A DNA stretch of 64,000 nucleotides, taken from positions 1,054,001-1,118,000 of the forward strand of contig CP002916.1 in NCBI GenBank assembly GCA_000350305.1, written 5' to 3'. The notes below the pieces were generated by a model. It saw only the letters and a program-made list of their open reading frames with translations, did no database searches and was not told the origin of the DNA. Shown in pieces: positions 1 through 33,624 of this stretch; within the stretch, counting starts at the first letter, position 1; the number at the start of each line of letters is the position of its first letter. Made by a program: the position numbers and the translations under genes. This DNA is from Thermoplasmatales archaeon BRNA1. Lineage in GTDB: Archaea > Thermoplasmatota > Thermoplasmata > Methanomassiliicoccales > Methanomethylophilaceae.

Positions 1-2594
1 ACCCTGATGTCGCCGGTACGGCGGTAGACCGATGCGCGGAACAGGATGTAATCCACGTTGTCCGGATCGGACTCCATGGCCTTGTCAGCCATCCTCCCGG
101 CGCCGACCACGTCGCCCACCTCCAGGAGCGACTTGGCTATCTGGAAGACGGATGCGGGGTCGTCATGCTGGACCTCGCTGACGGCCGCTGTCTCCCTGTC
201 ATCCTCCGTCGGGGTGCGGTCGAGGGAGGAATACAGCATGGACGCCTCGTCCCCCCTGCCGACCTTGTAGAGAGCATCCGCCAGGATCTTCCTGCTCTCC
301 TTGTCATACTGATCGAGTTTGATGATGTTGCGGCAGACCGCGATGAGGGCCTCGTTGTCCCCCATCTTCTGGCACAGTTCCCTGTAGACCACCAGGAGGT
401 CCACGTTGTCCGGGTCATCGGCGAGCGCTTTGTCGAGCAGCTTCCTCGCGGCGGCCGTGTCGTCCAGACCTATGTCCGCCCTGGCGAGACAGGCCACGGT
501 TATCGCGTCCGGGTCCTTCTTGACGAGCTTCTTCCCGATGTATGCGGCATCGGTGAAGCGGGTCGCGGCCAGATATATCTGCATCTTGATCTTCTGGATG
601 TCGTTGTTCTTCGGATCGGTCGCCTCGGCCAGATCCATGAAGTTGATGGCATCGGAGAAGCGCCCGTACTCCGCCATGATGGACGCCTTCTTCACGAGGG
701 CGTATGTGGAGGACTGGTCGAGCTCGATGGCGCGGTTGAACGAATCGACGGCGGCCACCTTGTTCCCCTTCATCTCCTGGACGCATCCCTTGGAGATCCA
801 GTAATGCGGGTTCTTCATGTCGAGCAGGACAGCCTGGTTGTAGGCCGCCTCCGCCGAATCGAGGTCGCCGAAGGCCTCGTCGGCGAGACCCTTGGAATGC
901 CATATCTCCGCACACTCCGGTTCGAGAGCAGCGGCGGATGCGAAGGACGCGGATGCCTTCAGGAACTCCCCGAGGGCGTATTCCGCGTTTCCCCTGAGCC
1001 TCCTGACTGCGGCCACGTTGCCGTATTTGTCATCGTTGTCCCTGCATAGCTTCTCCGCCTCGGCGTATTTGCGCTCGGCGATAAGCGTGGATATCAGCCT
1101 GATGAAGTCCTCCGACCCGGATACCTCCGGGAGAATGGATGAGGCGTCGGAGTCCTTGATGACCTGGGCCATCTCCAGCTTGGACAGGACGTTAGCCGCC
1201 TCGTCGTTGTGGGGATCGATCTCCAGGATCTTCCTGCAGGTCTCCATCGCCATGTCGTTCTCGCCGGCCTCGCGGTAGACCTCCATGAGGGTGGTCAGGG
1301 CCGTGACCGACTTCGCGTCGGCTGAGACGGCCCTCTTCGCATAGCGGACGGCCTTGGAGGTGTGCCTGAGGACCAGATACACCCTGGACATCTGCGCCAG
1401 GCTCTCCGGGTCCTTCCTGTTGTTGGAAACGGCGGCCTTGGCATAGGCCTCGGCCTCGCGGAGGTTGCCCTCCGCCACCATGGATTTGGACATGACGATA
1501 CATGCTGTGGCATCGCCCGGGTATGTGTTGAGGATCGCGGAAGCGACCTCGGATGCCTCGGCGGAGTATCCCATGCGGAGCATCTCGCGGGAGGCGTACT
1601 CGTAATCGTCGTACACGGCCATCTCTGAGTCCAGGAACTCGTTGAGAATCTCGAGGGCCTCGGAGTTCTTGCCGAGCGACATGTATCCCCGGATAAGTCC
1701 CCTGACGACTATGGGGTTGGCTGGGTCGTGGGCCTCCGCGCTCCTGAAACGTGCGAGGGCGGTCTCGGCATCCCCGCCGTTAAGGTAGGAGTCGCCGGTC
1801 TCGCAGAGGACGTTGATGTCATCCGGCATGGACTTGGATGCCTTCTCGTACATCCTCTGGGCGTTAACCCAGTCGCCCTCGTCCCTTGCCATCCTCGCGG
1901 ATAGGAGGATGTAGTCCGGGTCCTCCTCCTTGTATCCCTCGGAGGATATCAGAAGGCTGTTGGCGCCGTCGTGGGTGCCTCTGTACCACTCGTGGTAGAT
2001 GCGGTAGAGGGCCATCTCCGGCCCGCCGGTATCGTCGGGGGCATCGAAGGGCTTCCCCGCGGCCATGAGTTCTATGGCCATGAGCGCCCTCCAGTTCTTC
2101 TGGGGGATGAGCTTCTCGAGGAACTCGTATGCCTTGACGTTGAGGGGATCGCTGCGGAGACTGCCCATGAGGGACTTGGCCGCCTCTTGCGTGTGCTGGT
2201 CGGCGACCAGCACCTCGGCCTTCACGTAAGAGTAGGTGGGAATGTCCACCGAACCGTGGACCCCCTCGAGGTAGGTGCGGGCCTCGTTAACGATGCCCTT
2301 CCTTGCGAGACACGATGCCGCGGCGAGGGACGCTTTGCAGTCCTGGGGACGCTGTTTCGAAACCAGATCGGCGACGTCGTCCTTCCATCCCTCCGCCTCC
2401 TCGGCGGAGACGATCTCGATCATCCTCGCCAGCAGGGCGGATGAAACCTCGCCCTCGGACGTCAGGATTTTGGACAATGCCGCGGAAAGAGCCTTCTCGC
2501 GGTTCTGAAGGTTCTTCTGACCCTCGGCTCTGCGGATGTCATCCCATATGCCCGCTTCGAACTTGCTGCCGAATACCGGCAACCCCTCTGACAT
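1..2594 (-). CDS. Large TPR-repeat protein (3' end outside window)
   Basis: An open frame runs on the minus strand from an ATG at 2594 to the window edge, giving 864 codons without a stop. Translation begins MSEGLPVFGSKFEAG. The rest is alpha-helical, with repeated TPR-like pairs such as EGDWVNAQRMYEKASKSMPD, AEAYAKAAVSNNRKDPESLA and FGDLDSAEAAYNQAVLLD. I see no signal peptide, membrane segment or catalytic motif, so it is probably a cytoplasmic scaffold; its partner is unknown. The start is supported by a TATA-like ATTATTA near 2615-2622, about 25 bases upstream, and a purine-rich AGGGG stretch just before the ATG. The gene is transcribed away from the aquaporin gene. The C-terminus is missing, so a further domain there cannot be excluded. 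Confidence 0.85.
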   Translation of the reverse strand, partial: MSEGLPVFGSKFEAGIWDDIRRAEGQKNLQNREKALSAALSKILTSEGEVSSALLARMIEIVSAEEAEGWKDDVADLVSKQRPQDCKASLAAASCLARKGIVNEARTYLEGVHGSVDIPTYSYVKAEVLVADQHTQEAAKSLMGSLRSDPLNVKAYEFLEKLIPQKNWRALMAIELMAAGKPFDAPDDTGGPEMALYRIYHEWYRGTHDGANSLLISSEGYKEEDPDYILLSARMARDEGDWVNAQRMYEKASKSMPDDINVLCETGDSYLNGGDAETALARFRSAEAHDPANPIVVRGLIRGYMSLGKNSEALEILNEFLDSEMAVYDDYEYASREMLRMGYSAEASEVASAILNTYPGDATACIVMSKSMVAEGNLREAEAYAKAAVSNNRKDPESLAQMSRVYLVLRHTSKAVRYAKRAVSADAKSVTALTTLMEVYREAGENDMAMETCRKILEIDPHNDEAANVLSKLEMAQVIKDSDASSILPEVSGSEDFIRLISTLIAERKYAEAEKLCRDNDDKYGNVAAVRRLRGNAEYALGEFLKASASFASAAALEPECAEIWHSKGLADEAFGDLDSAEAAYNQAVLLDMKNPHYWISKGCVQEMKGNKVAAVDSFNRAIELDQSSTYALVKKASIMAEYGRFSDAINFMDLAEATDPKNNDIQKIKMQIYLAATRFTDAAYIGKKLVKKDPDAITVACLARADIGLDDTAAARKLLDKALADDPDNVDLLVVYRELCQKMGDNEALIAVCRNIIKLDQYDKESRKILADALYKVGRGDEASMLYSSLDRTPTEDDRETAAVSEVQHDDPASVFQIAKSLLEVGDVVGAGRMADKAMESDPDNVDYILFRASVYRRTGDIR

Positions 2595-24362: not shown

Positions 24363-25355
24363 TCAGGCCCAGGCGCTCTTCCTCTGGCGGATGAGGATCC
24401 ATATGAACAGCGGACCGCCGACCATCGCACTGATGACTCCGACGGGAAGTCCGCTGGAACCGGAAACCTTGGCGACGGTGTCTGCAAGGAGGATGAAAGC
24501 CGCACCGAAAGCCGCCGAAGCGGGGAGGAAATACCTGTTATTGGATCCGACGAATATCCTCGCGATATGAGGGCCGACGAGTCCGATGAAACCGATGGTC
24601 CCTGTGAAACTGACCACGGAAGCGGTCATGAACGACAGTATGATCAGCGTAGCAATACGGATCCTGTTGGCGTCCTCGCCCAAGGTGAGTGCGGACTTGT
24701 CCCCCGCATACATGACGTTGAGCTTGTTGACGAAGAAATACAGGGAAACGCCCAGCACCACGGTCGCCGAGACCATAACGGGGAGGACGTCCCAGGATAC
24801 CCTGTTGAGGGAACCCACCCTCCACGAGTATGCGTCCGCCAGGGACTCGGAGGGGGCCGTGACCATGAGCACCTGCGAGATCGAACTGAACAGGAACATG
24901 ACGGCTATTCCTGTGAGAATCATCGCGGCAGGAGTCATCTTCTTGAACTTCGATATGACCACGATGACTGCGGTCGGAATCAGAGAGAACACGAACGCAT
25001 TTGCCATGGTCACCAAAGGGCCGCTGATGAATGGGAGGATGGAGAATCCGCTTATGATGCTCAGACATGCTCCCAGGAACGCGCCTGACGATATTCCCAT
25101 CGTGTAGGGTTCCGCCAGGGGGTTTTTGAAATCGTTCTGCATGACCGCTCCGGCCAGGGCCAGCGCCGCGCCGGTCACTATCGCTCCGATCGCGCGAGGA
25201 GTACGGATATCCCAGATGTAGTAGTCGTCTCTCTCATTCACAGGATTTCCGAGAATATGATTGAAGAATGTTGAAATCGAATCCGACAGCGAGATATCAT
25301 ACACTCCGAACCCGAGGGTGAGTATGAACGATGCCACTACAAGAGCAGTGAACAT
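24363..25355 (-). CDS. FecCD-type ABC importer permease (system A, second permease)
   Basis: At least 330 aa, with eight or more hydrophobic segments and family landmarks IRTPRAIGAIVTGAALALAG, NPLAEPYTMGISSGAFLGA and GTIGFIGLVGPHIARIFVG. The family imports siderophores, haem or corrinoids with a binding protein and ATPase. ATG 25355 is the first standard start, but family-like sequence continues upstream in frame (EFAREYRRSNSKKVLFIL, parallel to EYHRQIARRIMLL of its neighbour). The true start may therefore be CTG at 25424, overlapping the upstream stop as CTGA. It is the last gene of a binding protein-permease-permease operon that lacks an ATPase. Confidence 0.88.
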   Translation of the reverse strand: MFTALVVASFILTLGFGVYDISLSDSISTFFNHILGNPVNERDDYYIWDIRTPRAIGAIVTGAALALAGAVMQNDFKNPLAEPYTMGISSGAFLGACLSIISGFSILPFISGPLVTMANAFVFSLIPTAVIVVISKFKKMTPAAMILTGIAVMFLFSSISQVLMVTAPSESLADAYSWRVGSLNRVSWDVLPVMVSATVVLGVSLYFFVNKLNVMYAGDKSALTLGEDANRIRIATLIILSFMTASVVSFTGTIGFIGLVGPHIARIFVGSNNRYFLPASAAFGAAFILLADTVAKVSGSSGLPVGVISAMVGGPLFIWILIRQRKSAWA

Positions 25356-25420: not shown

Positions 25421-26512
25421 TCAGTATATCGCCCCCGTCCTCTTGCTCTGGAAGACGATTAGTAGGAAGAACAAAGGCGCTCCGATCAGGCTCATTACCA
25501 CTCCGACCGGGATGTTGGCGAGCAGGTAGGCTATGTAGTTGGAAATGAGCAACAGCAAAGCTCCCAATGCCATGGAGATGGGCGTTACGAATCTGTTATC
25601 CGACCCGATTACCAACCTGACCAGGTGGGGGGCGACGAGTCCGACGAAACCGATAATTCCCGTGAAAGCCACGATGGACGCGGTCATGATTGCCATAAGT
25701 CCGAGGCAGAGGACCCTGAACTTATGGACGTCGATTCCCAGACTGATGGCGCTGTTGTCTCCCAGGGACATGACGTTCATCTTGCTGGTGGCTAGCATGA
25801 CGAATATCGAGCCGATTATGGTCACCCCGGCCATCACGGGCATGGAATCCCAGCCGATGCTCGACAGAGACCCGACCTGCCAGAGGTAAGCACTCTTCAG
25901 GGTGTCCGCATCCGTGGTCACCATCATGTACGTAATGAGGGCATTGAAGAAGTACGAGATGGCGGTACCCAGAAGAATCAGGGTAGCCGGGGTCATGCGT
26001 ATCCTCTCCGATATGATGATGATCGTTATCGCGGGAACCATCGCACCCAGGAACGCATTGGCCACTAGCCCGGTCTCGCCCGCTACCCCGGAAAAAGAGA
26101 TACCGACGATGATTGCCGCGACCGCACCGAAACAAGCTCCCGAGGAAATACCCGTGCTGTACGGATCCGCCAGGGGGTTAGCCATGATGGCCTGCATCAG
26201 GGTTCCGCATATCGCCAGGGATGCACCGGCCAGAATTGCTGCGACAACCTGCGGCATGGCAGTATTCCAGAGGTTTCTGTCCGCCCACCATTCGTAAGAC
26301 CTGGGAGGATACTCATTTCCAAGGATGTGGTTCCAAATCAATTCGTATGCCTTGCTGAGCGATAGCTCAGGGTACATCTTGATGGAAAATAGGCCGGCAA
26401 AGAGGATGATGCCCACTACGCATACCGCTAAAAGCATAATGCGACGGGCGATCTGACGATGGTATTCCGTTATGACCTCGCCCTTACTCAGGCTCTCTTC
26501 TGTTCCAGCCAT
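25421..26512 (-). CDS. FecCD-type ABC importer permease (system A, first permease)
   Basis: The protein has 363 aa from ATG 26512 (MAGTEESLSKGEVITEYHRQ). It has about nine hydrophobic segments with PQVVAAILAGASLAICGTLM, NPLADPYSTGISSGACFGAV and GIIGFVGLVAPHLVRLVIGS, the FecCD signatures including the ATPase-coupling region. Two different permeases in one operon may form a heterodimeric channel. It lies 43 bases after the binding-protein gene, separated from it by a hairpin, and its stop probably overlaps the start of the second permease. A start 42 bases upstream is possible but would lie in the hairpin. Confidence 0.92.
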   Translation of the reverse strand: MAGTEESLSKGEVITEYHRQIARRIMLLAVCVVGIILFAGLFSIKMYPELSLSKAYELIWNHILGNEYPPRSYEWWADRNLWNTAMPQVVAAILAGASLAICGTLMQAIMANPLADPYSTGISSGACFGAVAAIIVGISFSGVAGETGLVANAFLGAMVPAITIIIISERIRMTPATLILLGTAISYFFNALITYMMVTTDADTLKSAYLWQVGSLSSIGWDSMPVMAGVTIIGSIFVMLATSKMNVMSLGDNSAISLGIDVHKFRVLCLGLMAIMTASIVAFTGIIGFVGLVAPHLVRLVIGSDNRFVTPISMALGALLLLISNYIAYLLANIPVGVVMSLIGAPLFFLLIVFQSKRTGAIY

Positions 26513-26525
26513 TGTATCAAGTAAT

Positions 26526-26545
26526 GGGGAGGGTTTCCCCTCCCC
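26526..26545 (-). terminator. Intra-operon hairpin after binding-protein gene
   Basis: GGGGAGGG-GAAA-CCCTCCCC on the minus strand, a perfect 8-bp stem with no T run, between the binding-protein stop and the permease start. It most likely stabilises or attenuates the message so that binding protein exceeds permease. System B has a hairpin at the same place. Confidence 0.6.
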
Positions 26546-26554
26546 GGTTTTCAA

Positions 26555-27928
26555 TCAGGCAATCGCTGCATTGTAATCGTTCACATCGATGTACGAGCAG
26601 ATGCTGGAGAGGGTCTGTCCCTTGAGGGGCATGGTTCCTGTGTTGATGTAGTCCTTGAGGACGTCATCGGCCCAGCTCTTGGAGAACAGGTCGGGATACA
26701 TCGCGTGTGCCATGTATGCGATCTTGGCTCCTCCGGGGAGCAGGTTGTTGACGTAGACGAGCTTATCATCGTACCCCTTGAAGTAGACCTTGGAAGAAAC
26801 ACCATCGTTGTCGTGATCCCAGGTGTCGATGATCATGGCTTTGATACCGTCTGCATCGAGTCCGAAATCCATGGAACGGTTGTTGATGACCTTACCAACG
26901 GTAGTGTAGTTCGCCATAGCCTCGGTACCTCCCATCTTTTGGGAGTTCTTGGGGGTCGCCGCGTCGAAGTCCGCATTGACGTTCGCGTAGGCGTACCCTC
27001 CCGCAGTGGTGGCGGTGGTGTTGAAGGTCGAGGTCTTTCCGCAGAGGTAAATGTACATGGTGCAGCAGATGTAGGTGACCTTCTGCTCGTTGGTGTATCC
27101 TCCGACCTTGCTCTTGACGAACTCGATTACGTCCCATGCGATCTGGGCGTACTTGACCCCGAGCTTCTCACAGTCACCTCCGAAGAGGAATCCGAGAGTC
27201 AGGACGGTGGTGGTCTCATCGGTTGCATCTGCAGAGGAGAAGATAAGCATGGGAATGCCCGCCTTGGCACAGTCGTCTGCGCGGGCGGCGGTAATCTGGG
27301 CGATTCCGCTGTAGTCCACGATGAGTGCTCCGACTCCTCCCTTAGAGATGAGATCGGAATCGAGCTTGGTGAAGTTGGACCAGGCGGTCGCGCTGATGGT
27401 CCTGGTGGTTCCGTGAAGATTGACCGCGGTTTTTGCGATGGAAGCATCGGCAACATCATAGGAACTGACGAAGTATCCGGCCACATACTGTCCGCCGTTA
27501 GCATACAGGACGGGCTCCTGAACGTTGGTTCCGTAAGGCACAACGTTACGGAGCGGGTAGGTGCAGGAGACGGAAGTGTTCTTTCCATCTCTGTCAAGAC
27601 ATATCACATAAACGGTGCATCCTTCTTTCCTGTCGATGAGGTCCTGAAGGAGGGAGACATCGGTCTCATTTACCTTTCCGTCGTCATTGACATCGGCAAG
27701 AGGGAAGTCGTCTTTGTTCCTGGTTCCGTTGATGATATCCTGAACGATGGCCATATCGTCGCTGTTAATGGTGTGGTCGTCGTTCGCGTTTCCACGGATC
27801 TGGAGTTTAGACGCGATGTCGGCACTGGATCCGCTGTCATTTCCGTTTCCGAAAAGAACGAAGCATCCGGCTCCGACTACAACGACAACGGCAACCACTG
27901 CGGCGACCATTGTTATCATTTTGCTCAT
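26555..27928 (-). CDS. ABC importer binding protein with dockerin-like module (system A)
   Basis: The protein has 457 aa. The N-terminus MSKMITMVAAVVAVVVVVGA is a signal or membrane anchor with a cysteine soon after. Residues ~42-97 form a dockerin-like duplicated EF-hand-type module: RGNANDDHTINSDDMAIVQD and ADVNDDGKVNETDVSLLQDL, each with the D-x-N-D-D-x-x-I/V pattern. The rest is a TroA/BtuF-like periplasmic-binding fold (PYGTNVQEPVLYANG, ALIVDYSGIAQITA, KIAYMAHAMYPDLFS). It should capture the imported ligand, perhaps a corrinoid or metal chelate, outside the membrane. It is first in its operon; operators flank the TATA box. The dockerin fusion is unusual and recurs in the divergent system B. 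Confidence 0.88.
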   Translation of the reverse strand: MSKMITMVAAVVAVVVVVGAGCFVLFGNGNDSGSSADIASKLQIRGNANDDHTINSDDMAIVQDIINGTRNKDDFPLADVNDDGKVNETDVSLLQDLIDRKEGCTVYVICLDRDGKNTSVSCTYPLRNVVPYGTNVQEPVLYANGGQYVAGYFVSSYDVADASIAKTAVNLHGTTRTISATAWSNFTKLDSDLISKGGVGALIVDYSGIAQITAARADDCAKAGIPMLIFSSADATDETTTVLTLGFLFGGDCEKLGVKYAQIAWDVIEFVKSKVGGYTNEQKVTYICCTMYIYLCGKTSTFNTTATTAGGYAYANVNADFDAATPKNSQKMGGTEAMANYTTVGKVINNRSMDFGLDADGIKAMIIDTWDHDNDGVSSKVYFKGYDDKLVYVNNLLPGGAKIAYMAHAMYPDLFSKSWADDVLKDYINTGTMPLKGQTLSSICSYIDVNDYNAAIA

Positions 27929-28291
27929 TTTATCACTTAACCCCGTTATGACTTAAGGTCATAGAGTTGGGTCTATCATCCAAATGCTATATTTTATAGT
28001 TGGCATAGAAATCCAACATAAAATACAACCAACCATTCTACAATTGTTAAACAGGTAAATTAGATGTTTTAGGTCAATATTTAATGTCAAAACAAAAAAT
28101 AATGACAACTTTTATCAAAAATTCAATAATTGCTCGTGTCAATTTTATGTCGAATTTTTACAATGTCAATATTTATTTTTCTAATTGCCCGATTGTACTT
28201 AATCATTGGATTGATGAGCTGTTGCTAGTCAATGAAACATATTTGTAGTACTCGAAAAATAAACTCTTGGAGTATTAATCCAACTGATACT
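27929..28291. promoter_or_regulatory. Divergent importer control region with three TTGG-N9-CCAA sites
   Basis: This AT-rich 363-base region has no gene. Sites: TTGGGTCTATCATCCAA (27967-27983) and TTGGCATAGAAATCCAA (28000-28016) flank the minus-strand TATA (CTATAAAATATA, ~27986-27998) of system A. TTGGAGTATTAATCCAA (28267-28283) lies between a TATA-like AAAAATAAA (~28255-28263) and the system B start. A direct repeat GTCAATATTTA occurs at 28073 and 28165. Placement against the TATA boxes suggests repression. Confidence 0.7.
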
Positions 28292-29617
28292 ATGGCAAGC
28301 ATGAAAATTATCGCGATCGTTGTTGTCGCTGCAGTCGTAGTAGCCGGCGGTGCCGCCGCAGTCTTCATGCTGAATAATGATGATTATTATTCAGACAACT
28401 CCGACTGCAGGCTCCAGATTCTCGGAAACGCCGATAAGAACGACTATCTCGACAGCAAAGACGTTGACAAGATCAACGAACTGATTGAGAACAAACAGTA
28501 TGACCTTATGGCTGACGCCAACCACGACGACAAGGTCGATGCCGCGGATGCGGAATTCGTCAAGAAACTCATCGACCTGAAGAAGTCCAATACAGGCAAG
28601 GCCGCTGCCGACAAGGAGAAGGTCACCGTCTACTACATCACCGTGGACAACAAGGTCCAGCCCGCAACCTACCCTGTCAACAAGATGATCATCGTCAACA
28701 CCCAGAGGGCACTCGATCTCTGCATCAACCTCGGAATCACCGACAGGATCGTCGCACTCAACGACTACATCTTCGATCAGGCGATCAACGTAGACACCAT
28801 CAAGTACAAGGGATTCTCCAGCTACCCCTCTGTCGGAGACAGGAAGGAGCCCAATCTCGAGACCATCACCAAGACCGATGCCGACACAATCTTCGCCGGA
28901 ACCACTGGAACCTACATGAAGAACATCAGTGCCTCGGCCGCTACCTACGGGGAGAAGACCGTTCTCCGCCTCGCCACCTGGGAGAGGGGAGAATTCTGCA
29001 GCGGTGCGCTCACCCTCGGATTCTTCACCGATGCCGACGACAACGCCCAGAAGTACGTCAAGTGGAACGACAAGATCAACGAGGTTACTTCCGATGCCCT
29101 CGCAAAGGTCAACACGAAGGCAACCAAGATGCTCAACGCCTCCAGCGCCACCTGGTTCGGTGCTCAGTCCGACGGAGTGTCTACCGCACTCACCGCGACC
29201 GGAGTTACCAACATCGGAAACGACATCATCGTTAAGACCACCGGAAGCGGAGGATCCGTAACCACGTACAAGGAGAACATCGTGAAGGCTAACCCCAGCG
29301 TCATCGTCCTCTCGTACACCGTCGGTTACAACTGGACCCAGGAGCAGATGGATGACAAGTTCAACGGCATCGTGACTACCATGAAGGGAAGCATCGGTGC
29401 AACCACGGCCATCACCAACAACAATGTCTGCTGGCTGAACTACTACATGCCCTTCTGCCTGATTACCATGGTTGGAGCCAAGCTGATGTTCCCGGATGCC
29501 ATGTCCGATGTCAACGTGGACAAGTACATCCAGGAGTACCTGAAGGACTACTGCTCGAACATTACCGACTACACCTACAACTCCGCGCACTTCTACCGCG
29601 TTGCGGCAACTGCGTGA
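28292..29617 (+). CDS. ABC importer binding protein with dockerin-like module (system B)
   Basis: The protein has 441 aa from ATG 28292 (MASMKIIAIVVVAAVVVAGG). The N-terminal anchor is followed by a dockerin-like pair of calcium-loop repeats (LGNADKNDYLDSKDVDKINE and ADANHDDKVDAADAEFVKKL, residues ~37-92), then a TroA/BtuF-like binding domain (ALDLCINLGITDRIVALNDY, TITKTDADTIFAG). It is a paralogue of the system A protein transcribed in the opposite direction. An open frame extends 60 bases upstream, but the TTGG-N9-CCAA site at 28267-28283 and the TATA fix the start at 28292. It heads a binding protein-permease-ATPase operon, and the likely ligand is a corrinoid or metal complex. Confidence 0.88.
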   Translation: MASMKIIAIVVVAAVVVAGGAAAVFMLNNDDYYSDNSDCRLQILGNADKNDYLDSKDVDKINELIENKQYDLMADANHDDKVDAADAEFVKKLIDLKKSNTGKAAADKEKVTVYYITVDNKVQPATYPVNKMIIVNTQRALDLCINLGITDRIVALNDYIFDQAINVDTIKYKGFSSYPSVGDRKEPNLETITKTDADTIFAGTTGTYMKNISASAATYGEKTVLRLATWERGEFCSGALTLGFFTDADDNAQKYVKWNDKINEVTSDALAKVNTKATKMLNASSATWFGAQSDGVSTALTATGVTNIGNDIIVKTTGSGGSVTTYKENIVKANPSVIVLSYTVGYNWTQEQMDDKFNGIVTTMKGSIGATTAITNNNVCWLNYYMPFCLITMVGAKLMFPDAMSDVNVDKYIQEYLKDYCSNITDYTYNSAHFYRVAATA

Positions 29618-29649: not shown

Positions 29650-29671
29650 TTCCCTTTGGGGATTGGCCAAG

Positions 29672-30781
29672 ATGTTTTGCAAAAAGGAAAAACAGGAAAC
29701 CGAATTCACTCCGGAGTCCATAGATAGGGTTCTCGACGAAGAAGAGTTCAATGCCATCTACGGCCACTCCATTTACAAGAAACTGCTTTTTATCGCCATA
29801 TGCGTCGCTTCGTTCATACTGGTGTCGGGAATCTCGATGACCATCGGGGAGTACGACATCGGCTTCTTCGAATCGTACGTCATCGCCTGGAACCATCTCT
29901 TCGGAGATGTTGGAGACACCACCAAGGACTTTGTAATCTGGGAGATCAGACTGCCCCGCATAATTGCGGGGATAATATCCGGTGTCGGCCTAGCTACCTG
30001 CGGTGCCGTCATGCAGAGCACCATGAAGAACCCGCTCGCGGACCCGTATACGACCGGAATCTCCTCCGGAGCGTCGTTCGGTGCGACCCTTGCCATCATC
30101 CTCGGGCTGACCATCATCGCAGGCGATTACGCCATCGTCCTGAACGCGTTCATATTCGCACTCATACCGATGGCACTCATCATGCTCATCTCAAGCATAA
30201 GGAAGACGACTGCCACGATGATCATCCTGTGCGGAATTGCGGTCATGTATCTCTTCAACGCCATGACCACCGTCATGATGCTGATGGCCAACCCTAACGA
30301 TCTTGCTGCCGTATATTCATGGCAGGTGGGTACGCTCGGCAGTTCCTCCTGGAACACCATTCCTATAATGTTCACTTTCGTTCTCGTAGGATTCGTCATC
30401 CTCGAGCTCCTTTCGAGCAAAATCAACGTTCTGGCCTCCGGAGATGAAAACGCAAAGTCGCTGGGTCTCAACGCTGAACAGCTCCGTCTCATATGTCTGT
30501 TAGTCGTGTCGCTGGTCGCTGCGTCTGTTGTCAGCTTCACCGGAATCATCGGTTTCGTCGGACTCGTCTGTCCCCACATGTGCCGCATGATACTGGGGTC
30601 CGATAACAGGTACCTGATCCCCGCATCGGGCGCCCTCGGTGCCACACTCATGGTGGCCTGCGACCTCATCGGAAGGACGATCATAGCCCCCTCCGTCCTC
30701 CAGGTCGGAGTGGTGACCGCGTTCATCGGAGGTCCGATGTTCCTCTGGCTGCTGCTCAGACAGAAGAAGGAGGTGTGGTGA
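29672..30781 (+). CDS. FecCD-type ABC importer permease (system B)
   Basis: The protein has 369 aa from ATG 29672 (MFCKKEKQETEFTPESIDRV). It has an unusually long charged cytoplasmic N-terminus (~40 residues), then about nine membrane segments with IRLPRIIAGIISGVGLATCG, NPLADPYTTGISSGASFGAT and GIIGFVGLVCPHMCRMILGS. It forms the membrane channel of system B. Its TGA overlaps the ATG of the ATPase gene. A TTG nine bases upstream is an alternative start. Confidence 0.93.
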   Translation: MFCKKEKQETEFTPESIDRVLDEEEFNAIYGHSIYKKLLFIAICVASFILVSGISMTIGEYDIGFFESYVIAWNHLFGDVGDTTKDFVIWEIRLPRIIAGIISGVGLATCGAVMQSTMKNPLADPYTTGISSGASFGATLAIILGLTIIAGDYAIVLNAFIFALIPMALIMLISSIRKTTATMIILCGIAVMYLFNAMTTVMMLMANPNDLAAVYSWQVGTLGSSSWNTIPIMFTFVLVGFVILELLSSKINVLASGDENAKSLGLNAEQLRLICLLVVSLVAASVVSFTGIIGFVGLVCPHMCRMILGSDNRYLIPASGALGATLMVACDLIGRTIIAPSVLQVGVVTAFIGGPMFLWLLLRQKKEVW

Positions 30782-31623
30782 TGACCTCGCTCCGCTTCGA
30801 GAACGTGTATTTCGAATACAACAGCAAAGCGAAGATCCTCCGCGACATCAACCTCTCCATCGACAGGCCCGGGCTGATATGCATCATAGGGCCCAACGGA
30901 GTGGGGAAATCCACTCTCGTCAAATGCATCAACAGGCTCCTCACACCGACCGAGGGCAACGTCCTGATCGACGATAAACCGATATCGGAATACCGTACGA
31001 GGGATCTCGCCACCGTTGTCGGATATGTGCCAGCGTTCTCTACCGATGACTTCGCCATGTCCGTTGTCGACACCGTCATGATGGGCAGGCACCCATACCG
31101 CCGCATGGGTTCCACAAGGGAGGACCTCCACATCGTGTACGAGGTCCTGAAAGAGTTGGGGATCACTCACCTTGCCATGCGCAACTTCGATGAACTCTCG
31201 GCGGGACAGCACCAGAAGGTATCGCTCGCCAGAGGTCTGGCACAGAGTCCGGACATCCTCATCCTCGACGAACCCACCGCCAATCTGGATATCAAACACC
31301 AGGTGGAGGTCACCCGTCTGATGAGGGACATCTCCCACGAGAAGAACATCACCACCGTAATGATCAGCCACGACCTCAACGTCTCGTGCAAATACGCCGA
31401 CGAGGTCATTGTCATGTCCTCCCCGGGGATCATCTACAAGATCGGCACGCCTTCGGAGGTCATGACCCCCGAACTCGTCAAGTACGTGTACGGCATGAAT
31501 TGTCTCATAGTGGATGACAACGGCCGCCCCCACGTAATCCTTCAGGAGCCCATACCTGAAGAGGAGTTCAGGGCGCTTCATTCCACCGACCCAGAAATAA
31601 CCCGGAGCGAATCAGATGACTGA
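30781..31623 (+). CDS. ABC importer ATPase (system B, FecE/BtuD-like)
   Basis: The protein has 280 aa. It has Walker A GPNGVGKST (residue ~37), signature LSAGQHQKVSLARG, Walker B DILILDEPTANLD and switch His in TVMISHDLN. It pairs with the system B permease, whose stop overlaps its ATG (GGTGATG). The C-terminal extension VYGMNCLIVDDNGRPHVILQ closely resembles that of the orphan ATPase heading the cbi operon, so the two are recent paralogues. It overlaps the next hydrolase gene by eight bases. Confidence 0.94.
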   Translation: MTSLRFENVYFEYNSKAKILRDINLSIDRPGLICIIGPNGVGKSTLVKCINRLLTPTEGNVLIDDKPISEYRTRDLATVVGYVPAFSTDDFAMSVVDTVMMGRHPYRRMGSTREDLHIVYEVLKELGITHLAMRNFDELSAGQHQKVSLARGLAQSPDILILDEPTANLDIKHQVEVTRLMRDISHEKNITTVMISHDLNVSCKYADEVIVMSSPGIIYKIGTPSEVMTPELVKYVYGMNCLIVDDNGRPHVILQEPIPEEEFRALHSTDPEITRSESDD

Positions 31624-32514: not shown

Positions 32515-33624
32515 ATGAGAGCAAGGAACCTAGCTATCCTCATTTCCGCTGCGTTCCTGCTCTCCTCCGTTCTGGTCCTCGCGTCCGACGATTCCTCCGC
32601 AGAGGCGAGCATCACCCTCACCGACGGCCGCGGGAAGACCTGCAAGCTGTACGAGCCCGCACAGCACATAGTCAGCGTGGGGAAAGGGCTCACAATGACC
32701 GTCATCGACCTCGGCTACGTGGACAGCATCGTGGTCTGCGACAAGTACTCCAACGTCGCCACGGACGGCCGCTTCAAGAAACTGAACGACAACGTCGCCA
32801 CGGGGAAGACCTACGCCGGCGGAAGCCTGTGGAGCATCCCCGCGATGAAGAACGAGATCTTCGACAAGGCGGATTCCGAACAGGGAGGGACTTTCGACAA
32901 AGAGAAGGACGTGGTCATGATCACCGTGGGAAGTGCTAGCACCACCTCGACCGGCATCAACGTCCTCAACCTGGAGAGCGAGCTAAGATCCGCGGGATTC
33001 AGGAACGTCCTCATCTGGTTCGAGATTACCGAGTATGACGAGATCGTCGATTTCGTGAGGCAGGTCTCCCTCGCCATGAAAGGCGAGGTGGACGGCGTGG
33101 TGTTCGACATGGAGTATGTGAAGGACCATATCGCCTCCGAACTAGGCGATACCGAGAAGAGGAAGGCGTTCTACGTCACCTACTCCGGCGGTGCCTTCAA
33201 GGTGGGTAACAAGGGTTCCCTGGGAACATCTCTGGCACTTGCTGCTGGAGCAAACGTCGTGACCATCGATGCGTCCAAGGAGCCCACCTATGCCGCCAAC
33301 CTCACGGACCTCATCGGCACGTACGGGACGGACACCGTCGTATTCGCAGACGGCAGCATGGCTAGCGCGAGGCTCTCGGAACTCAGGGACAAGGTCGGCA
33401 ACGACGTCAAGATCGTGGTCATGGATCCCCTGTGGAACAACTTCGACCCCGAGAGCAAGGACGGGATCTGGACCTTCGCCTGCGCACTGTATCCCGAGCT
33501 GTTCTCCGGGGATGTGCCTACCGCGCCACTCGCCGACGATCCGAATTACCTGGGATACTCTCTCGCCGGATTCGGCGTCGCAACCGTAATCGGCCTAGCG
33601 GGAACGTTCTACATCAGGAGATGA
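32515..33624 (+). CDS. ABC importer binding protein, membrane-anchored at the C-terminus (system C)
   Basis: The protein has 369 aa. A signal peptide (MRARNLAILISAAFLLSSVL, cleaved near SSAEA) is followed by a BtuF/FepB-like binding domain (QHIVSVGKGLTMTVIDLGYV, SIVVCDKYSNVATDG, NVVTIDASKEPTYAANL). A C-terminal membrane helix SLAGFGVATVIGLAGTFYIR ends RR. It lacks the dockerin module of systems A and B. A TATA GTTATATAC about 28 bases upstream and no ribosome binding site suggest a leaderless mRNA. No TTGG-N9-CCAA site precedes it, so it is regulated separately. It heads a binding protein-permease-ATPase operon. Confidence 0.88.
   Translation: MRARNLAILISAAFLLSSVLVLASDDSSAEASITLTDGRGKTCKLYEPAQHIVSVGKGLTMTVIDLGYVDSIVVCDKYSNVATDGRFKKLNDNVATGKTYAGGSLWSIPAMKNEIFDKADSEQGGTFDKEKDVVMITVGSASTTSTGINVLNLESELRSAGFRNVLIWFEITEYDEIVDFVRQVSLAMKGEVDGVVFDMEYVKDHIASELGDTEKRKAFYVTYSGGAFKVGNKGSLGTSLALAAGANVVTIDASKEPTYAANLTDLIGTYGTDTVVFADGSMASARLSELRDKVGNDVKIVVMDPLWNNFDPESKDGIWTFACALYPELFSGDVPTAPLADDPNYLGYSLAGFGVATVIGLAGTFYIRR

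What the first reader, a model, noticed from the sequence alone, without database searches (positions are those of the whole stretch)
26555..29617. Two ABC binding proteins carry a dockerin-like calcium-binding module
Both divergent binding proteins have, between the N-terminal anchor and the ligand-binding fold, two repeats of the D-x-N-D-D-x-x-I/V-x-x-x-D type (NANDDHTINSDD and DVNDDGKVNETD; NADKNDYLDSKD and DANHDDKVDAAD). Dockerins normally attach enzymes to cohesin scaffolds. Here the module could tether the receptor to a surface cohesin or act as a calcium- or metal-stabilised spacer.
Basis: partly seen in the sequence, partly recalled or inferred. Interest (0 to 1): 0.6.

Follow-up and report, generated by a model that had tools for sequence, protein, structure and literature searches.

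The report
Dockerin-fold module fused to transport receptors
Two nutrient-uptake receptors of a gut methanogen carry a small calcium-binding module descended from the 'dockerin' plug of cellulose-digesting bacteria, but the matching socket is missing from this genome, so here the module is more likely a built-in structural part of the receptor than a plug.

Summary
In detail: both divergent FecCD-type binding proteins have a two-loop calcium module between membrane anchor and ligand-binding fold. It is homologous to type I dockerins: P0001 passes PF00404, P0002 is borderline, and the family profile matches CelS dockerin at 2.7e-10. The genome has four such receptors and no detectable cohesin, by Pfam or by a lineage-specific profile. 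The module is fixed in one receptor clade of Methanomassiliicoccales-like archaea. In a tree built without it, 45 module receptors fall on one side of a branch. An SBP-only search of 14 congeneric genomes found it upstream of 68 of 69 receptors examined. Calcium ligands are nearly invariant; cohesin-recognition positions are variable, even in a genome that has cohesins. Of 87 genomes with the module, 74 have no cohesin hit. Some relatives string two or three [module+receptor] units into one protein. Best reading: a dockerin turned into an obligatory calcium-stabilised spacer/subdomain of the receptor. Against this, genomes with cohesins carry more modules (median 15 against 3), so docking in some species is not excluded. 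Dockerin-bearing ABC receptors are in print for ANME archaea; I saw no print on this clade or its concatemers in nine searches of one open-access library.

The parts
26555..27928 (-). P0001: anchored substrate-binding protein with dockerin-fold module, 457 aa
   Evidence: ORF; PF00404 26.3 bits; model pLDDT 89.0, pTM 0.87
27815..27928 (-). P0001 N-terminal hydrophobic anchor and linker (residues 1-38, low pLDDT)
   Evidence: sequence; pLDDT under 50 for 1-38
27617..27808 (-). P0001 dockerin-fold module (residues 41-104)
   Evidence: PF00404 49-95; pLDDT 95-98 over residues 41-110; family alignment
27755..27790 (-). P0001 calcium loop 1 (residues 47-58), Asn at position 1
   Evidence: 58 of 58 parsed modules have Asn there
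27659..27694 (-). P0001 calcium loop 2 (residues 79-90)
   Evidence: Asp1 and Asp12 in 58 of 58
26579..27613 (-). P0001 substrate-binding fold (residues 106-450), complete, YiuA-like
   Evidence: Z 24.3, rmsd 2.9, 308 aligned, model 106..450 to chain 1..347
28232..29617 (+). P0002: anchored substrate-binding protein with dockerin-fold module, 461 aa (residue 24 is a likelier start, 28301)
   Evidence: ORF; PF01497 34.9 bits; model pLDDT 81.1, pTM 0.82
28409..28606 (+). P0002 dockerin-fold module (residues 60-125)
   Evidence: pLDDT 93-98 over residues 61-130; A3 profile 95.3 bits
28427..28462 (+). P0002 calcium loop 1 (residues 66-77)
   Evidence: invariant columns G65 N66 D77
28514..28549 (+). 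P0002 calcium loop 2 (residues 95-106)
   Evidence: invariant columns D95 D106
28622..29605 (+). P0002 substrate-binding fold (residues 131-458)
   Evidence: YiuA Z 28.5, rmsd 2.6, 310 aligned, model 134..458; FepB row starts at 132; PF01497 154-377
25421..26554 (-). FecCD-type permease next to P0001
   Evidence: PF01032 1.2e-76
24363..25355 (-). second FecCD-type permease of the P0001 side
   Evidence: PF01032 1.7e-83
29663..30781 (+). FecCD-type permease of the P0002 side
   Evidence: PF01032 2e-90
30775..31623 (+). ABC ATPase of the P0002 side
   Evidence: PF00005 2.4e-31; FecE-like best NCBIfam row, under cut-off

Best explanation
The module is a real dockerin descendant that was fused once to the front of a FecCD-type (metal or siderophore class) receptor in an ancestor of this archaeal order and has stayed as an obligatory part of that receptor clade. 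SHOWN: homology to dockerins, one side of the receptor tree, near-constant association with the receptor fold, near-invariant calcium ligands, unconserved cohesin-recognition positions, no cohesin detected in this genome, and use between receptors in two- and three-receptor chains. INFERRED: it binds two calcium ions in the mineral-rich gut fluid and folds into a rigid block that holds the receptor off the membrane anchor (or off the preceding receptor) so that it can reach its permease, with no cohesin partner.
For: Homology: A3 profile against PDB, 4fl4 2.7e-13 and CelS dockerin 1daq 2.7e-10 over residues 4-68 of 71. No cohesin in the own genome. Across the order the module is in 87 of 147 genomes, a cohesin in 15 of 147 by PF00963 and 12 of 147 by the local profile, all 12 among the 15; 74 of the 87 have none. 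One side of a branch (SH-aLRT 96) for 45 module receptors against 28 others, module removed. SBP-only profile in 14 genomes of the genus: of 73 hits at E<=1e-20, 69 examined, 68 with the module upstream; own genome 4 of 4. Calcium positions 1, 3, 5, 9, 12 have entropy 0-1.13, positions 10, 11, 17, 18 have 2.25-2.90, 58 modules. In 13 P0001-type orthologues: ligands 0.95, recognition 0.45, receptor 0.75. In G041, which has cohesins, recognition identity among 16 SBP modules is 0.18 against 0.26 for other surface positions. Tandem units: L048-L051 and L136 two each, L135 three. Models: module pLDDT 93-98, pTM 0.82 and 0.87.
Against: Genomes with a cohesin carry more modules (median 15 against 3, Mann-Whitney p 4e-5; presence 13 of 15 against 74 of 132, Fisher p 0.026); 'cohesin-positive' here counts weak hits, and genome size also correlates (Spearman 0.24). 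Recognition identity is not low everywhere: G036, cohesin-positive, 0.325 against 0.243 for other surface; also above the other surface in the cohesin-negative G039, G040 and G034. Recognition residues differ between species in true cellulosomes too, so variability between genomes is weak evidence. Many genomes are incomplete drafts. The canonical comparison set is only 9 dockerins, of which not all have the K/R pair. Coordinates and inter-domain error were not available, so rigid packing of module and receptor is inferred from pTM alone. One of 69 receptors lacks the module (L194), so it is not strictly indispensable.
Confidence: 0.6

Rival explanations
1. It is a working dockerin: the receptors dock, by calcium-dependent plug-in, to a cohesin too divergent for the profiles, or to a cohesin displayed by a neighbouring gut organism.
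For: Real dockerin homology; real cohesins and cohesin-dockerin proteins occur in the same genus and family; module copy number is higher in cohesin-positive genomes; Chadwick 2022 (section 32 read) proposes such docking for ABC receptors of ANME archaea.
Against: No cohesin in the own genome with two profiles; 74 of 87 module genomes without one; recognition positions do not converge among the four own modules (0.167) or the 16 of G041 (0.181), whereas the four repeats of two canonical dockerins in G041 all have K/R at 17 and 18. The receptors already have their own membrane anchor.
Confidence: 0.2
2. The module is a calcium sensor that changes receptor position or affinity with external calcium.
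For: Loop 1 has Asn at the first ligand position in 58 of 58 modules, which might weaken one site and make it adjustable (recalled EF-hand chemistry); the junction to the receptor is as conserved as the receptor itself, 0.75.
Against: No direct evidence; ligand sets are otherwise full, as in a structural site; no calcium-related genes were sought nearby.
Confidence: 0.1
3. The module mediates self-association, clustering receptors at the surface.
For: Concatemers of two and three [module+receptor] units show that multivalent display is favoured in the lineage.
Against: No conserved surface patch was seen at the tested positions; not modelled as a complex.
Confidence: 0.08

Closest known systems
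Type I dockerin (PF00404), e.g. CelS dockerin of Clostridium thermocellum (1daq)
   Same: Two 12-residue calcium loops each followed by a helix, ligands at 1, 3, 5, 9, 12; profile match over nearly the whole chain.
   Different: Asn at loop-1 position 1 in 58 of 58; recognition positions 10, 11, 17, 18 not conserved; at the N-terminal side of a receptor fold; no cohesin found in the genome.
Dockerin-bearing ABC substrate-binding proteins of ANME archaea (Chadwick et al. 2022, PMC9012536, section 32 read)
   Same: A dockerin domain on the receptor of an ABC importer in methane-cycling archaea.
   Different: There NikA/OppA and TroA types, in genomes with cohesin-rich proteins, and docking is the proposed role; here a FecCD-type clade of another lineage, mostly without cohesins.
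Cluster of YiuA / FepB / MolA / CeuE metal- and siderophore-type binding proteins
   Same: Complete receptor fold in both proteins (YiuA Z 28.5 and 24.3), FecCD permease next door.
   Different: Extra module in front; sequence identity 10-18% in the best rows; ligand unknown.
Tandem substrate-binding domains of GlnPQ (PMC8025302, abstract start seen in a search listing)
   Same: Several receptors in one chain at different distances from the permease.
   Different: In GlnPQ the domains are linked to the transmembrane domain; here two or three FecCD-type receptors are joined to a separate anchor, each with its own dockerin-fold module.

Membership tests
Dockerin type I | Curated profile score PF00404 at or over 22.9 bits | tested here: met
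   P0001 26.3 bits. P0002 18.9 on the protein, 22.8 (23.4 with neighbours in frame) in the genome search: met for P0001, borderline for P0002.
Dockerin type I | Two calcium loops with D/N ligands at 1, 3, 5, 9, 12 and F-hand helices | tested here: met
   helices 56-66 and 88-98 (P0001), 75-86 and 104-120 (P0002) in the models. Calcium binding itself not tested.
Dockerin type I | Cohesin partner encoded in the same genome | tested here: not met
   PF00963 no match at E<=1; lineage profile A4 no match at E<=0.1. Genome 99.68% complete, one contig.
Dockerin type I | Conserved recognition residues at 10, 11, 17, 18 among dockerins of one genome | tested here: not met
   Pairwise identity 0.167 among the 4 own modules and 0.181 among 16 of G041. 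Positions taken from PMC6780208 and PMC4582956 (passages). Position 22 was not counted.
Dockerin type I | Calcium-dependent tight binding to cohesin | not testable with these tools
   Needs a binding experiment.
FecCD-associated substrate-binding protein (Peripla_BP_2 class) | Profile PF01497 | tested here: inconclusive
   P0002 met, 34.9 bits (cut-off 27.5); P0001 no match at E<=0.1.
FecCD-associated substrate-binding protein (Peripla_BP_2 class) | Two-lobed fold with a complete match to solved members | tested here: met
   YiuA Z 28.5 (P0002) and 24.3 (P0001).
FecCD-associated substrate-binding protein (Peripla_BP_2 class) | FecCD permease gene adjacent | tested here: met
   PF01032 for window 24363-25355, 25421-26554 and 29663-30781.

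The most novel reading that the evidence does not exclude
A dockerin that has left the cohesin world: fused once to a receptor, it lost the recognition face, kept both calcium sites, became an inseparable subdomain, and serves as the calcium-locked repeating joint from which this archaeal clade builds one-, two- and three-receptor rods, so that receptor display or reach depends on gut calcium.
Probability: 0.35. Interest if true: 0.6.

Novelty: new variant of a known kind. Interest (0 to 1): 0.45.

Why it matters
Dockerin hits are commonly read as a sign of cellulosome-like assembly. Here a large set (458 module-profile hits in 87 genomes of one order; 284 of them in genomes without a cohesin hit) is better explained without docking, so dockerin counts in archaeal genomes may mislead. 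It also gives a clean case for the old question of what dockerins do outside cellulosomes, testable with two small recombinant proteins, and it points to multi-receptor ABC import proteins in gut methanogens.

Tried and rejected
Rejected: chance EF-hand-like linker (profile E-values). Rejected: anchor spacer only, since internal units in tandem proteins keep the module. Considered and kept as rival: cohesin docking. I looked for results that would rescue it and found one partial point, the higher module count in cohesin-positive genomes; I then tested recognition convergence inside G041 and saw none.

Led nowhere: alignment A1 was too diverse for the search for related loci; NCBIfam had no model at E<=0.01 for the three receptors; a first script for canonical dockerins had a slicing fault and found none, corrected; no dockerin appeared among the VIA rows, which one domain can fill, so this says nothing. 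Papers saying what this clade's module does: none seen in nine searches of one open-access library; Peer 2009, a review of non-cellulosomal dockerins cited by the papers read, is not held and was not read, so priority is not settled.

Rows dropped before counts: receptor units under 380 aa, with X, cut at a contig end, or duplicate (45 units kept); 1 of 59 modules not parsed. Of the 73 SBP-profile hits at E<=1e-20, 69 went into; one more (L090) was known to have the module; 3 were not examined (two at contig ends, one 107-aa fragment). In one search one of the 68 positives is a partial match at a contig end (L148), and two (L153, L202) score only about 20 bits because some tens of residues are inserted between intact loops. 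In one search, 65 modules were parsed, so some of the hits above are not in it.

Full report
OBSERVATION. The two divergent genes encode P0001 (27928..26555, minus, 457 aa) and P0002 (28232..29617, plus, 461 aa). PF00404 finds three places in the 1.46 Mb genome: these two, and a third receptor outside the window at 803020. On the proteins alone P0001 passes the curated cut-off (26.3 against 22.9 bits) and P0002 does not (18.9). A profile built from 29 relatives finds four module receptors in the genome, the fourth at 1032396. Named relatives of P0001 are Candidatus Methanomethylophilus and Methanomethylophilaceae, several from the rumen; I infer that the window's organism belongs there.

IS IT A DOCKERIN BY DESCENT? 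Yes. P0001 alone hits dockerin chains in the PDB (4fl4 3e-4, 1daq 4.2e-4). The family profile hits 4fl4 at 2.7e-13 and CelS dockerin 1daq at 2.7e-10 over residues 4-68 of 71. Both models show the two loop-helix units with pLDDT 93-98.

WHAT SITS BEHIND IT? A complete binding fold. P0002 residues 134-458 match YiuA with Z 28.5, rmsd 2.6, 310 aligned; P0001 residues 106-450 match it with Z 24.3, rmsd 2.9, 308 aligned. The module is therefore added to, and does not replace, part of the receptor. FecCD permeases flank both genes and an ATPase follows on the P0002 side. The ligand is unknown; the nearest structures bind iron, siderophores, nickel or molybdate by their titles.

IS THERE A COHESIN? 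Not that I can find in this genome: none at E<=1 with PF00963 and none at E<=0.1 with a profile of ten cohesins from the same order. In the order, 147 genomes held: PF00404 in 82, the receptor-type module profile in 87, PF00963 in 15, local cohesin profile in 12, all among the 15. Two of the 15 have no module hit, so 13 of 87 module genomes have a cohesin hit and 74 have none. The eleven genomes with a PF00404 match of 42 bits or more are all among the 15 cohesin genomes. The best such matches that I read are canonical dockerins in non-receptor surface proteins, several beside a cohesin in the same ORF. The receptor-type modules score far higher on their own profile (75-129 bits) than the canonical ones do (21-31 bits).

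HOW TIGHTLY DOES IT GO WITH THE RECEPTOR? I removed the module from 45 receptors and built a tree with 28 module-less receptors of the same family. The 45 form one side of a branch, SH-aLRT 96, one change of label against a shuffled mean of 22.8 (quick method, several long branches). The rows were chosen by different searches, so I also searched 14 genomes of the genus with a profile of the receptor part alone. Of 73 hits at E<=1e-20 I examined the upstream sequence of 69, and 68 have the module; one, L194, does not. In the own genome it is 4 of 4. Outside the order the profile finds only weak matches: 15 of the 52 positive genomes among 389 of the phylum, best 1.4e-15.

TANDEM RECEPTORS. In four named rumen loci the P0001-type receptor is the C-terminal half of a 966-1126 aa ORF with a first [module+receptor] unit in front. 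In L049 two Big_2 domains lead, and two permease-like ORFs and an ATPase-like ORF follow (judged by likeness to the window's genes, not by Pfam). L136 has two units, and L135 has three in 1324 aa, with module starts 426 and 420 residues apart. Every unit keeps its own module.

CONSERVATION. In 58 of 59 distinct modules that could be parsed, loop 1 has Asn at position 1 in 58 and Asp at 12 in 58; loop 2 has Asp at 1 and 12 in 58. Ligand positions have entropy 0-1.13 bits; positions 10, 11, 17 and 18, which published work on clostridial dockerins names as cohesin contacts (PMC6780208 and PMC4582956, passages), have 2.25-2.90. In 13 P0001-type rows, ligands are 0.95 conserved, recognition positions 0.45, the receptor 0.75 and the junction after the module 0.75. 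Variation between species is expected of true dockerins as well, so I looked inside single genomes: mean pairwise identity at recognition positions is 0.167 for the four own modules and 0.181 for 16 modules of G041, a genome with five cohesin hits, against 0.259 for other surface positions in G041. Two canonical dockerins of G041 have K or R at both 17 and 18 in all four repeats; the 16 receptor modules listed have this in 5 of 32 repeats (my count from that list).

AGAINST MY READING. Cohesin-positive genomes have more module hits, median 15 against 3, p 4e-5, and presence is enriched too (13 of 15 against 74 of 132). Genome size correlates weakly and some surface-rich genomes may simply have more of everything, but docking of some receptors in those species is not excluded. 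In G036 recognition identity is higher than other surface (0.325 against 0.243; five modules), and the same holds in cohesin-negative G039, G040 and G034, so the measure is noisy for small sets. The models came without coordinates or inter-domain error, so rigid packing rests on pTM 0.82 and 0.87.

MECHANISM. Most likely the module is a calcium-locked block that joins anchor and receptor, or receptor and receptor. Shown: homology, constancy, ligand conservation, missing partner here, internal use in tandems. Inferred: calcium binding, rigidity, effect on reach or stability.

COMPARISON WITH PRINT. Chadwick et al. 2022 (section 32 read) report that common dockerin proteins of ANME archaea are ABC binding proteins of NikA/OppA and TroA types, in genomes with scaffold-like cohesin proteins, and propose that docking attaches functional proteins to the cell's outer layer. 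The 2017 review PMC5244752 (passages) reports many dockerin and cohesin domains in ANME and says the function outside cellulosomes is not known. Searches with Methanomassiliicoccales or Methanomethylophilus plus dockerin listed no paper whose title or abstract start concerns these receptors; of those I read passages only of PMC13317134, where the dockerin mentions are cellulosomal. So the kind (dockerin on an ABC receptor) is known; the lineage-fixed, cohesin-independent variant and the receptor concatemers appear new within what I could search.

Noticed in passing
L048, L049, L050, L051; L135 and L136: Two- and three-receptor fusion proteins in which each FecCD-type receptor carries its own dockerin-fold module; the three units of L135 look like recent duplicates.
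   Followed up: partly
L105, L107, L110, L113, L116, L123, L127, L132 and others: A second receptor clade of the same family has a different N-terminal domain of about 165 aa (motif LDFG near its start) and no dockerin module; Pfam names only Peripla_BP_2 in the two tested. From memory it recalls a cobalamin-related DUF4430 domain; not tested.
   Followed up: no
window 32515-33624: A further receptor-like protein (369 aa) downstream of the P0002 operon, with a C-terminal instead of N-terminal hydrophobic anchor and no module; no Pfam match over cut-off.
   Followed up: no
G000:C1:1032396 (L090, L137) and G000:C1:803020 (L002, L138): Two more module receptors of the same genome outside the window; the first faces two convergent permease-like ORFs, the second is followed by an ORF that looks like a double methyltransferase (judged by sequence only).
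   Followed up: partly
L139 and L048: Receptor proteins with an additional domain of roughly 120 aa (motif near S-S-R, T-E-N-Y), repeated several times in L139; not identified.
   Followed up: no
L004, L005, L007, L036, L038, L042 and cohesin loci L034-L043: True cohesins and canonical dockerins, several in the same ORF, in a minority of methanogens of this order: a possible archaeal cohesin-dockerin surface system.
   Followed up: partly
L153, L202, L209: Receptor modules with an insertion of several tens of residues between two intact calcium loops.
   Followed up: no
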